This document shows positions 13,696 through 32,003 of a DNA stretch of 64,000 nt, in pieces. The stretch lies in assembly GCA_014764515.1 (NCBI GenBank), contig JACXWD010000008.1, forward strand, positions 27,617-91,616, written 5' to 3'. Below the pieces are notes generated by a model. It had not been told where the DNA came from. It worked only from the letters and a program-made list of their open reading frames with translations, and ran no database searches. The translations under genes were made by a program, and so were the position numbers. How positions within the stretch are numbered: position 1 is the first letter of the stretch; each line of letters begins with the position of its first letter. Source of the DNA: Candidatus Polarisedimenticola svalbardensis (GTDB lineage Bacteria > Acidobacteriota > Polarisedimenticolia > Polarisedimenticolales > Polarisedimenticolaceae).

Positions 13696-13927
13696 CCGTC
13701 GGCTGCACCGGCTCGGCGTAGATGACCCTGGGCGCTTCCGGAACGATCAGCCACGCCACCAGGTAGGCCAGGATACCGGGGACCACCCCGGTCATCGCCG
13801 TGCCGAACACCCAGGCCAGTCGGATCAGCACCGGATCCAGTTGGAAGTACTCACCGATGCCGCCGCAGACCCCGGACAGCTTGCGATCATCCAGGCTGCG
13901 GGTCAGTTTTCGTCCTCTCAGATCCAT
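13682..13927 (-). CDS. PspC domain protein
   Basis: LTRSLDDRKLSGVCGGIGEYFQLDPVLIRLAWVFGTAMTGVVPGILAYLVAWLIVPE. Confidence 0.9.
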   Translation of the reverse strand: MDLRGRKLTRSLDDRKLSGVCGGIGEYFQLDPVLIRLAWVFGTAMTGVVPGILAYLVAWLIVPEAPRVIYAEPVQPTVNES

Positions 13928-14070
13928 TGCGAGTCTCCCCTGGGGGATACCGTTCCCCTGCCCTGTGTAACGGCCTGGATTGCCCCCGGTTCCAACTTTT
14001 TTCCCGAATTGAGAAATTCGGCCCGATCGGCTTGCTTTTCCGGGTTTCCGGGCCGAACTTTCTCTTTACT

Positions 14071-15288
14071 ATGGCACTTTACGGAGATTTCAGATCATTC
14101 CCGGTCACCGACCTGCTTCAGTGGGTCGAGAGCTCGCGGAAAACCGGCGTTATCGAAATCGAGCAGCGCCACATCAAGAAGGCGATCGTCTGCCGTGAAG
14201 GGCGGATCGTCGCCTGCACTTCCGACGACCCTTCCACCCGCCTGGGCCAATCGCTCCTGGCCCAGCGCAAGATCACCGAATCCCAGCTTCAGGACGCACT
14301 GGCGGTCCACGAGGCCAGCGGCAAGATCCTGGGCGAGGTCCTGGTGGAATCCGGCATGGTCACCCTGGAAGTGGTGGTGGAACATGTGGCCGCCAAGGCG
14401 GAAGAGGCGATCTACGGCCTGTTCGACCAGGAGGACGCCTTTTTCCGTTTCGACGAAAACGGCGAGGAGCCGGTTTACCTGGTAGCGGTGGACCTGAACG
14501 TCCAGGAAATCCTGCTGAAAGGCCTGAAGCGTTACGACGAGATGAACCAGATGCGGGAGGTGTTCACCGATCCTGGAGTCATCCTCGCCCGCACCATGAA
14601 GGACCTGCCTGCCGGAGTCTCCGGCAGCCGGGCTTCCCTGAGGCTGCTCCAGGCGGTGGATGGCGAACGCACTCTGGAAGAAATACTGCTGCACACCCGG
14701 GGCTCCGAGTATCTGGTCACCCGGTTCCTGTTCCAGCTCTTCCGGAGCAACCTGCTGGAGATCCGCGGGATGCGCCCAGTGGCGCCCCTGGTCCCCTCGG
14801 ATCAGCCGCAAAACGATTCGCGTAGCGAGACCGGTAGCGGAGTGTCCGGTGAGATCGAGCTGGCCGGCCAACTGATGGAACGAGGTGAGCACGACGCCGC
14901 CATCGCAGTGCTGGAGGCGACCAGCCGGGCCTGGCCCGGAGCGCCGACGGTCCGCCAGATGATCAGCCGGGCCGAAGCGGAGTACTTCGAAAAGATCAGC
15001 CAGCTTATACCTTCGTCTGCAGTCCCGATCATGGACACCGAACTGAACGAGTTGGCCTGCGAGTCCCTCTCCCCCGGTGAGGCCTACCTGACGACCCTGA
15101 TCGACGGTGTGGCCGAAATCAAGTCGATCCAGTGGATCGCTCCCATGCGTGCCCTGGACGTTCTGCGGAACCTGCAACGGCTACTGGACCGGGGCATGAT
15201 CCGGCTGGTGGACCGGCAGCCCCTTGACCCGGCGGCCTCTCTCCCCGAGGATGACACCCGGGGAGGCGTCCATGGCGGGGAAAGGTAG
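14071..15288 (+). CDS. DUF4388 domain-containing protein
   Basis: MALYGDFRSFPVTDLLQWVESSRKTGVIEIEQRHIKKAIVCREGRIVACTSDDPSTRLGQ; start moved to 14071. Confidence 0.8.
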   Translation: MALYGDFRSFPVTDLLQWVESSRKTGVIEIEQRHIKKAIVCREGRIVACTSDDPSTRLGQSLLAQRKITESQLQDALAVHEASGKILGEVLVESGMVTLEVVVEHVAAKAEEAIYGLFDQEDAFFRFDENGEEPVYLVAVDLNVQEILLKGLKRYDEMNQMREVFTDPGVILARTMKDLPAGVSGSRASLRLLQAVDGERTLEEILLHTRGSEYLVTRFLFQLFRSNLLEIRGMRPVAPLVPSDQPQNDSRSETGSGVSGEIELAGQLMERGEHDAAIAVLEATSRAWPGAPTVRQMISRAEAEYFEKISQLIPSSAVPIMDTELNELACESLSPGEAYLTTLIDGVAEIKSIQWIAPMRALDVLRNLQRLLDRGMIRLVDRQPLDPAASLPEDDTRGGVHGGER

Positions 15289-30287: not shown

Positions 30288-30689
30288 ATGCCGGCAAAGC
30301 TGCGAATATTCGAAACGGTTCTGTACGCCGACGACCTGACGGCCGCCGAGGTGTTCTACCGGGAAGTCCTCGGCCTTATCACCCTCCAGACCAGCGACCT
30401 GTTCATCACCTTGGCCTGCGACCAGGTCTACCTGCTTATCTTCGACCGCAATAAAAGCGAAGAGGAAGGCCGCCCGGTCCCCTCCCACGGCACTACCGGA
30501 CCCGGCCACCTGGCATTCGCCGTGGAAGCAGACGACCTGGACTCATGGCGCATCCGACTCCGCAACCACGGCGTACCGATCGAGGACGAGGTCGACTGGA
30601 AATCGGGAGGACACTCGATCTACTTCCGGGATCCCGCCGGCAACAGCCTGGAACTGGCCCCACCGGATCTCTGGAAATCCAGATCCTGA
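30288..30689 (+). CDS. VOC-superfamily (glyoxalase-like) protein
   Basis: ETVLYADDLTAAEVFYREVLGL, HLAFAVEADDLDSWRIRLRNHGVPIE, SIYFRDPAGNSLELAPPDLW. Confidence 0.92.
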   Translation: MPAKLRIFETVLYADDLTAAEVFYREVLGLITLQTSDLFITLACDQVYLLIFDRNKSEEEGRPVPSHGTTGPGHLAFAVEADDLDSWRIRLRNHGVPIEDEVDWKSGGHSIYFRDPAGNSLELAPPDLWKSRS

Positions 30690-30730
30690 ACTGGACCAAT
30701 CCGGTGCATGGTAGGCAGGGAGGATTCTCA

Positions 30731-31057
30731 ATGGCGCCTGATATGGATTTCGTGAAATTCGTTGTCGATCAAATGTCGGATGCCGGCTCTGTCCGGTACA
30801 GGATGATGTTTGGCGAATGTACGGTTTACTGCCAGGATAAAGTCGTAGCGCTGATTTGCGACAACCAGCTGTTTATCAAGCCGACGGACGCCGGGCGCTC
30901 GTTCATCGGAGAGGTTACAGAAGCGCCTCCCTATACGGGAGCCAAACCTTTTTTCCTCATTGAAGAACAGGTCGAGGACAGAGAGTGGCTCTGTGAATTG
31001 GTAAGACGGACCGAGGCGGAGCTTCCGAAGCCGAAACCGAAGAAAAAGAAGCAGTGA
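30731..31057 (+). CDS. TfoX N-terminal-domain protein
   Basis: VRYRMMFGECTVYCQDKVVALICDNQLFIKPTDAG...PPYTGAKPFFLIEE. Confidence 0.87.
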   Translation: MAPDMDFVKFVVDQMSDAGSVRYRMMFGECTVYCQDKVVALICDNQLFIKPTDAGRSFIGEVTEAPPYTGAKPFFLIEEQVEDREWLCELVRRTEAELPKPKPKKKKQ

Positions 31058-31058
31058 T

Positions 31059-31562
31059 ATGAACATCATCGATAACTGGAACGAGATCAAACGCCTGTTC
31101 AAGGATTCGTTCCGATCGTCTTTCCATTATGCGATTGCGACCGTGTCTGAAAACGGAGAGCCCCACGTGACGCCTGTCGGTTCACTGATCCTCGGCAAAC
31201 CGGGGCATGGGATCTATTTCGAAAAATTCCCCCAGCATCTTCCCCGGAACCTGGAAACCAACAAACAGGTTTGTGTTCTTGCCGTCAACAGCAGCAAATG
31301 GTTCTGGCTCAGGTCCCTGGTAGGCGGGAAGTTCACCACTCCACCTGCGGTTCGATTGCACGGAGTCGCCGGTGATCTTCGGGAAGCCACCGACACCGAG
31401 GTGGCAATCTGGCAGAAGAGAGTTCAGCGCGTCCGGTTCAGCAGAGGCCACGCCCTCATCTGGCGGGACATGAGCCTGGTTCGGGAGATCGAATTCACCC
31501 GGGTCGAGCCTGTTCTTGTGGGGAAAATGACCAGCGCTTCCTGGGATGTTCAATCGACCTGA
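31059..31562 (+). CDS. Pyridoxamine 5'-phosphate oxidase-like FMN-binding protein
   Basis: HYAIATVSENGEPHVTPVGSLILGKPGHGIYFEKFPQHLPRNLETNKQVCVLAVN. Confidence 0.85.
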   Translation: MNIIDNWNEIKRLFKDSFRSSFHYAIATVSENGEPHVTPVGSLILGKPGHGIYFEKFPQHLPRNLETNKQVCVLAVNSSKWFWLRSLVGGKFTTPPAVRLHGVAGDLREATDTEVAIWQKRVQRVRFSRGHALIWRDMSLVREIEFTRVEPVLVGKMTSASWDVQST

Positions 31563-31621
31563 GAATTTCTTTGCGAAGCGCCCGGTTATACTGTCTCCAG
31601 ACGATTCGATAAGGAGACGAG

Positions 31622-31879
31622 ATGGATATCGAGATTCACTACTGCCCCACGTGACAGAACAACCAGGCCAAGGCTGCGAGTCTCGCAGCCCTCATCAAGC
31701 AACAGCTTCAGGTCGAAGCTGTCCAAAAACCCGGAAAGACCGGCCAGTTCGATGTGCTCGTCGACCGGGAAACGGTCGTTACCCGTGGAGGCAACTGGTT
31801 CACCAGGAAGTTCGGCGCAGGCTACCCGGACTTTAAGGATGTAATCGAACTGCTCTCGACGCGTCGCACCAGTTCATGA
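31622..31879 (+). CDS. SelW/Rdx-family selenoprotein with in-frame UGA (Sec) at codon 11
   Basis: MDIEIHYCPT(U)QNNQAKAASLAALIKQQLQVEAVQKPGKTGQFDVLVDRETVVTRGGNWFTRKFGAGYPDFKDVIELLSTRRTSS; TGA at 31652-31654; AAGGAGA RBS; absent from the ORF track. Confidence 0.85.
31672..31690 (+). promoter_or_regulatory. Bacterial SECIS element
   Basis: GGCTGCGA-GTC-TCGCAGCC: perfect 8-bp stem, loop beginning with G, 25 nt between UGA and loop. Confidence 0.82.
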
Positions 31880-32003
31880 CGAGGGAATAATGCCGTACTG
31901 GGAACTGCCCGAGGATGTGGCCCGAGATGACACTGCCTCCCTGGAGTGGGCCCGGTTGTCCATCGCCATCGCCTCAGGGCAACGGTAGTTTTCGAGTCCT
32001 GGT

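What the first reader, a model, noticed from the sequence alone, without database searches (positions are those of the whole stretch)
31622..31879. Unannotated SelW/Rdx-like selenoprotein gene read through an in-frame UGA (C-P-T-U motif)
Seen directly: from ATG 31622 (RBS AAGGAGA) the frame reads MDIEIHYCPT-TGA-QNNQAKAASLAALIKQQLQVEAVQKPGKTGQFDVLVDRETVVTRGGNWFTRKFGAGYPDFKDVIELLSTRRTSS and stops at TGA 31877. The UGA sits in CxxU, the redox motif of SelW/Rdx proteins. The sequence after it keeps the Rdx pattern (G-x-F-x-V-x-V-D...), so this is not a simple nonsense mutation. ORF callers that treat UGA as stop miss it; the track has only an unrelated frame here (31546..31836). The organism would then need SelA/SelB/SelD and tRNA-Sec, which are not in this window.
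Basis: partly seen in the sequence, partly recalled or inferred. Interest (0 to 1): 0.85.

Follow-up and report, generated by a model that had tools for sequence, protein, structure and literature searches.

The report
SelW/Rdx-like selenoprotein gene with UGA
A small redox-protein gene that standard gene finders miss carries an in-frame UGA that the bacterium almost certainly reads as selenocysteine; it is a real but divergent member of the well-known selenoprotein W-like family.

Summary
From ATG 31622 the frame runs through TGA 31652-31654 (C-P-T-U) to TGA 31877-31879, and the protein matches Pfam Rdx (E=1e-7). The genome has selA, selB, selD and a tRNA-Sec with anticodon UCA. Homologues align across the UGA, and all 19 matches in the class carry one TGA. 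The region after the UGA is under purifying selection against the closest relatives. It meets the published consensus and is kept by compensatory changes. The predicted fold matches solved SelW-related proteins. The gene belongs to a divergent SelW-like subfamily (CxTU, GQF[DE], extra C-terminal segment) found in about 14 of 396 genomes of the phylum, always with UGA; NCBIfam cut-offs miss it. One relative elsewhere has Gly at the Sec position together with a damaged hairpin. SelW-like selenoproteins have been known for about 20 years, so this is a new member of a known kind. Sec insertion itself is inferred, not measured.

The parts
31611..31616 (+). ribosome-binding site AAGGAG
   Evidence: sequence; most relatives also have GGAG before the start
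31622..31879 (+). SelW/Rdx-like selenoprotein CDS, 85 aa, UGA at codon 11 read as selenocysteine, UGA terminator
   Evidence: predicted fold
31643..31654 (+). redox motif C-P-T-U (TGC CCC ACG TGA)
   Evidence: motif C-x-T-U kept in the subfamily
31652..31654 (+). selenocysteine UGA codon
   Evidence: TGA at the same alignment position in the relatives read here, except the Gly variant L042
31672..31690 (+). bacterial SECIS hairpin GGCUGCG-AGUCU-CGCAGCC, apical loop 31679-31683, 24 nt after the UGA
   Evidence: consensus in PMC13188914

Best explanation
This is a functional gene for a SelW/Rdx-type selenoprotein. SelB carrying Sec-tRNA(Sec) binds the SECIS hairpin 31672-31690 and decodes UGA 31652 as selenocysteine, giving an 85-residue thioredoxin-like-fold protein with a C-P-T-U redox centre after its first strand. 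The Cys/Sec pair most likely does thiol/selenol redox chemistry (selenenylsulfide formation) on an unknown partner, as proposed for SelW. Shown here: gene structure, homology across the UGA, presence of the Sec machinery, conservation and covariation of the hairpin, predicted fold. Inferred: actual Sec insertion, redox activity, substrate.
For: Rdx homology on both sides of the UGA. Complete Sec machinery: selB 326 bits, tRNA-Sec 73.3 bits with anticodon UCA, selA 485 bits, selD 366 bits and itself with a UGA. All 19 class-level homologous stretches have exactly one TGA. In 396 genomes of the phylum the subfamily-level matches (E<=2e-13) all have TGA and none has Cys; the query profile held C at that column, so Cys forms would have been found. 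Hairpin: 7-bp stem, -14.2 kcal/mol; covariation score reached by 0/500 shuffles in two alignments, 97% of cells paired against 35-66% when slid. dN/dS after the UGA 0.12-0.31 against the four closest Sec relatives. Predicted fold, pLDDT 82, best PDB matches SelW-related. Cys homologues lack a 7-bp stem at this place. A covariance model built from these genes ranks this gene and the second Rdx gene far above everything else in the genome, though this gene and that one were in its training set.
Against: No protein or Se-labelling data. The single-sequence folding z-score is modest (-1.7). One relative (L042, 59% identical) has Gly at the Sec position although its genome carries selB, so Sec is not indispensable everywhere, or that copy is decaying or holds a sequence error. 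dN/dS against distant members is uninformative (saturated dS, high dN). NCBIfam SelW models score below their cut-offs.
Confidence: 0.95

Rival explanations
1. Pseudogene or sequencing error: a Cys codon (TGC/TGT) turned into TGA, leaving a dead or mis-sequenced Rdx gene.
For: TGA is one base from TGC/TGT; the window comes from an assembly in 180 contigs.
Against: Independent genomes carry TGA at the same position; purifying selection after the UGA against close relatives; covarying SECIS hairpin; complete Sec machinery.
Confidence: 0.02
2. UGA is reassigned to another residue (Cys, Trp or Gly) in this organism, so no selenium is involved.
For: Reassigned UGA codes exist in other bacteria (own knowledge).
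Against: 23 of 45 ORFs taken as gene proxies in the window end in TGA, and so does this gene; tRNA-Sec(UCA) and selA/B/D are present; the UGA is followed by a SECIS hairpin.
Confidence: 0.01
3. The UGA mainly terminates, so the gene makes a 10-residue peptide and read-through is only occasional or regulatory.
For: RF2 competes with SelB at UGA; 30-40% recoding is reported in vivo (PMC4513850, abstract).
Against: The part after the UGA carries the domain and is conserved; ten residues cannot fold.
Confidence: 0.02

Closest known systems
Bacterial SelW-like (SELENOW-like) selenoproteins, Pfam PF10262 Rdx, motif CxxU (PMC1088965, PMC1794560, PMC9312934)
   Same: Family match, CxxU motif, UGA plus SECIS inside the coding region, predicted fold, size
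   Different: C-x-T-U instead of the common CxxUNY; GQF[DE] instead of GG[VI]F[DE]; a longer segment (RGGN...GAGYP) in place of FSK...GRFP; below the NCBIfam SelW cut-offs
Second SelW-like selenoprotein of the same genome (C123:2075-2281, L001; CMEUNYEP)
   Same: UGA at the same place, SECIS-like hairpin with loop GGUCU
   Different: Classical subfamily, 72 aa, over both NCBIfam cut-offs
SelW-related proteins of known structure: 3dex (SAV_2001), 2fa8, 2p0g, 2obk
   Same: Predicted fold, TM-score 0.67-0.76
   Different: About 20-32% identity; Cys-type proteins (own knowledge), so no SECIS is needed

Membership tests
SelW-like / Rdx (PF10262) | Profile match over the domain | tested here: met
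   E=1e-7, 32.5 bits against cut-off 22.6, positions 2-72/74
SelW-like / Rdx (PF10262) | CxxU/CxxC redox motif after strand 1 | tested here: met
   C8-P-T-U11; strand 3-7, then helix 12-29 in the model
SelW-like / Rdx (PF10262) | SelW/Rdx thioredoxin-like fold | tested here: met
   predicted model, pLDDT 82; best PDB matches are SelW-related proteins
NCBIfam SelT/SelW/SelH models (TIGR02174, NF041051) | score over the curated cut-off | tested here: not met
   20.3 against 34.2 and 28.3 against 88 bits: related, but outside those curated models
Bacterial selenoprotein gene | in-frame UGA kept as Sec (or replaced by Cys) in homologues | tested here: met
   one Gly exception, L042
Bacterial selenoprotein gene | SECIS: stem 4-16 bp, loop 3-9 nt with G in its first two positions, 16-37 nt from the UGA, MFE <= -7.5 kcal/mol (PMC13188914) | tested here: met
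   7 bp, loop AGUCU, 24 nt, -14.2 kcal/mol
Bacterial selenoprotein gene | selA, selB, selC and selD in the genome | tested here: met
Bacterial selenoprotein gene | selenium in the protein product | not testable with these tools
   needs 75Se labelling or mass spectrometry

The most novel reading that the evidence does not exclude
The CxTU / GQF[DE] / RGG proteins form a separate, Sec-only offshoot of the SelW family with its own C-terminal segment and its own redox partner, which has escaped annotation because no Cys form exists in the lineage to reveal it.
Probability: 0.4. Interest if true: 0.45.

Novelty: new member of a known kind. Interest (0 to 1): 0.33.

Why it matters
It adds a divergent SelW-like subfamily to the bacterial selenoproteome that standard ORF calling breaks and curated family cut-offs miss, so selenoproteomes of this phylum are probably under-counted. 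The lack of Cys forms here fits the earlier report that SelW-like proteins have few Cys homologues in Sec-using organisms (PMC1794560). The one Gly variant with a damaged hairpin is a natural case for asking what the Sec does.

Tried and rejected
2) A second SECIS-like stem with the same AGUCU loop at window 14607-14625 lies inside an ordinary ORF (13927-15288) and its upstream TGA is out of frame: chance. 3) Of eleven other window TGAs with loose SECIS-like stems, the ten scanned give no Pfam match when read through. 4) Plasmids and PHROGs hold no relative. 5) Conserved gene neighbourhood: apart from the gene's own locus, the window neighbours are not found beside the relatives' genes within 1.5-2 kb flanks, save one weak alpha/beta-hydrolase match in L026 (loci L080-L107 were fetched later and not checked), so context gives no partner. 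6) Weaker SECIS-model hits elsewhere in the genome (E>0.009) show no convincing UGA gene. 7) One alignment used wrong minus-strand offsets (A3) and was redone (A4). 8) The organism was not identified; the nearest named relative is an Acidobacteria MAG, so Acidobacteriota is a guess.

Full report
OBSERVATION. Window 31622-31879 (+) reads MDIEIHYCPT-TGA-QNNQAKAASLAALIKQQLQVEAVQKPGKTGQFDVLVDRETVVTRGGNWFTRKFGAGYPDFKDVIELLSTRRTSS and ends at TGA 31877-31879. The RBS AAGGAG lies 5 nt before the ATG. Read with Cys at the UGA, the protein matches Pfam Rdx PF10262 at E=1e-7 over residues 3-78, that is, across the UGA. The overlapping 96-aa ORF 31546-31836 has no Pfam match. Its best similarity to relatives (50% to L080, against 60% for the Rdx frame) begins at about residues 23-30, near the Rdx start, as expected for an out-of-frame shadow.

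SEC MACHINERY. The window lies in G000:C180. The same assembly (100% complete, 4.9% contamination) holds selB (C143, 326 bits over the cut-off of 242), tRNA-Sec (C143:84218-84312, 73.3 bits over 47, ARAGORN anticodon TCA), selA (C74, 485 bits) and selD (C54, 366 bits). SelD has its own UGA (CAGU), followed by GGCGCAG-GUG-CUGCGCC. The genome has a second Rdx gene with UGA (C123, 56 bits), of the classical CxxUNYEP type.

HOMOLOGUES. In the class (41 genomes held), 17 genomes have a match and all 19 matching stretches contain exactly one TGA. Reading them in frame puts the TGA at the fourth position of the CxxU motif wherever the frame was recovered. In 396 genomes of the phylum, 116 have an Rdx gene and nearly all full-length matches contain one TGA; the best-scoring exceptions are a CTQC clade. 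A profile of the window protein and close relatives (A2) finds 15 places in 14 of the 396 genomes at E<=2e-13, all with TGA and none with Cys, although the profile carried C in that column. Those read in frame share C-x-T-U (C-T-S-U in the most distant one) and GQF[DE], and most have an R-G-G type segment followed by a P. In a FastTree tree nine of them group with support 0.97; the CDTU/CQTU members (L083, L086, L087) fall elsewhere, so monophyly of the wider set is not shown.

SECIS. After the UGA come 17 nt, then GGCUGCG-AGUCU-CGCAGCC (31672-31690). The loop starts 24 nt after the UGA; the fold is -14.2 kcal/mol. This meets the published bacterial model: stem 4-16 bp, loop 3-9 nt, G in the first two loop positions followed by G or U, spacing 16-37 nt, MFE <= -7.5 (PMC13188914). 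Across 13 Rdx genes, 96.7% of pair cells are standard pairs (35-59% when slid), with 11 double-changed cells and a covariation score reached by 0 of 500 shuffles. In 11 genes of the subfamily the figures are 97.4%, 10 and 0 of 500. Pair 24-36 alone appears as CG, AU, GC, GU and UA. Related sequences can exceed shuffles without structure, but the slid controls keep relatedness and fail. The Cys homologues in L050-L057 that could be read show at most 4-5 bp here. A covariance model from these genes finds this gene (E=5e-16) and the second Rdx gene (7e-15), both in its training set, in the whole genome; the next hit is at 0.01.

SELECTION. Codons after the UGA give dN/dS 0.31, 0.25, 0.12 and 0.23 against the four closest Sec relatives, as expected of translated sequence. 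dS is near saturation for several pairs, and ratios against distant members go up to 0.98, so only the close pairs are informative.

A NATURAL VARIANT. L042, from an Acidobacteria MAG (JAJPIE010000047.1), is 59% identical and has GGA (Gly) for the UGA. Its hairpin has lost a central pair and the continuous stem is 4 bp; the predicted structure is rearranged. Its genome still has selB. Loss of Sec together with decay of the hairpin fits a hairpin kept for Sec insertion, but this is one sequence and could include an assembly error.

FOLD. AlphaFold2 on A2 gives pLDDT 82 and pTM 0.71, with the motif between strand 3-7 and helix 12-29. The top PDB matches are SelW-related proteins (3dex, 2p0g, 2fa8, 2obk; TM-score up to 0.76), and MIEN1 and mouse SelW follow. 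The subfamily-specific segment 51-70 is among the least certain parts (block means 70 and 60).

WHAT IS KNOWN. SelW-like CxxU selenoproteins were the most abundant family in the Sargasso Sea set (PMC1088965). Few Cys homologues occur in Sec-using organisms (PMC1794560). They are listed as PF10262/CxxU in reviews (PMC9312934, PMC13188914). SelW genes missed in annotation are on record (PMC4607533). The novelty is therefore a divergent subfamily below NCBIfam cut-offs, not a new kind. Sec insertion, redox activity and partner remain inferred.

Noticed in passing
L020 974-976 (-), own genome C54, beside selD: A peroxiredoxin-like ORF with in-frame UGA in GYWUPFC and a SECIS-like CUGCAA-GGU-UUGCAG downstream: a probable further selenoprotein of this genome.
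   Followed up: partly
L020 1531-1533 (+): SelD is itself a predicted selenoprotein (CAGU) with hairpin GGCGCAG-GUG-CUGCGCC downstream.
   Followed up: partly
L042 2001-2264: Relative with Gly (GGA) at the Sec position and a damaged SECIS stem, in a genome that still has selB.
   Followed up: partly
window 31890-31988 (+): 32-aa ORF directly after the selenoprotein gene resembles the C-terminal end of TfoX_N (E=0.001, under the cut-off); a fuller TfoX_N gene lies at 30545-31057.
   Followed up: partly
window 14607-14625 (+): Perfect 7-bp stem with AGUCU loop inside an ordinary ORF; the nearby TGA is out of frame, so probably chance.
   Followed up: yes
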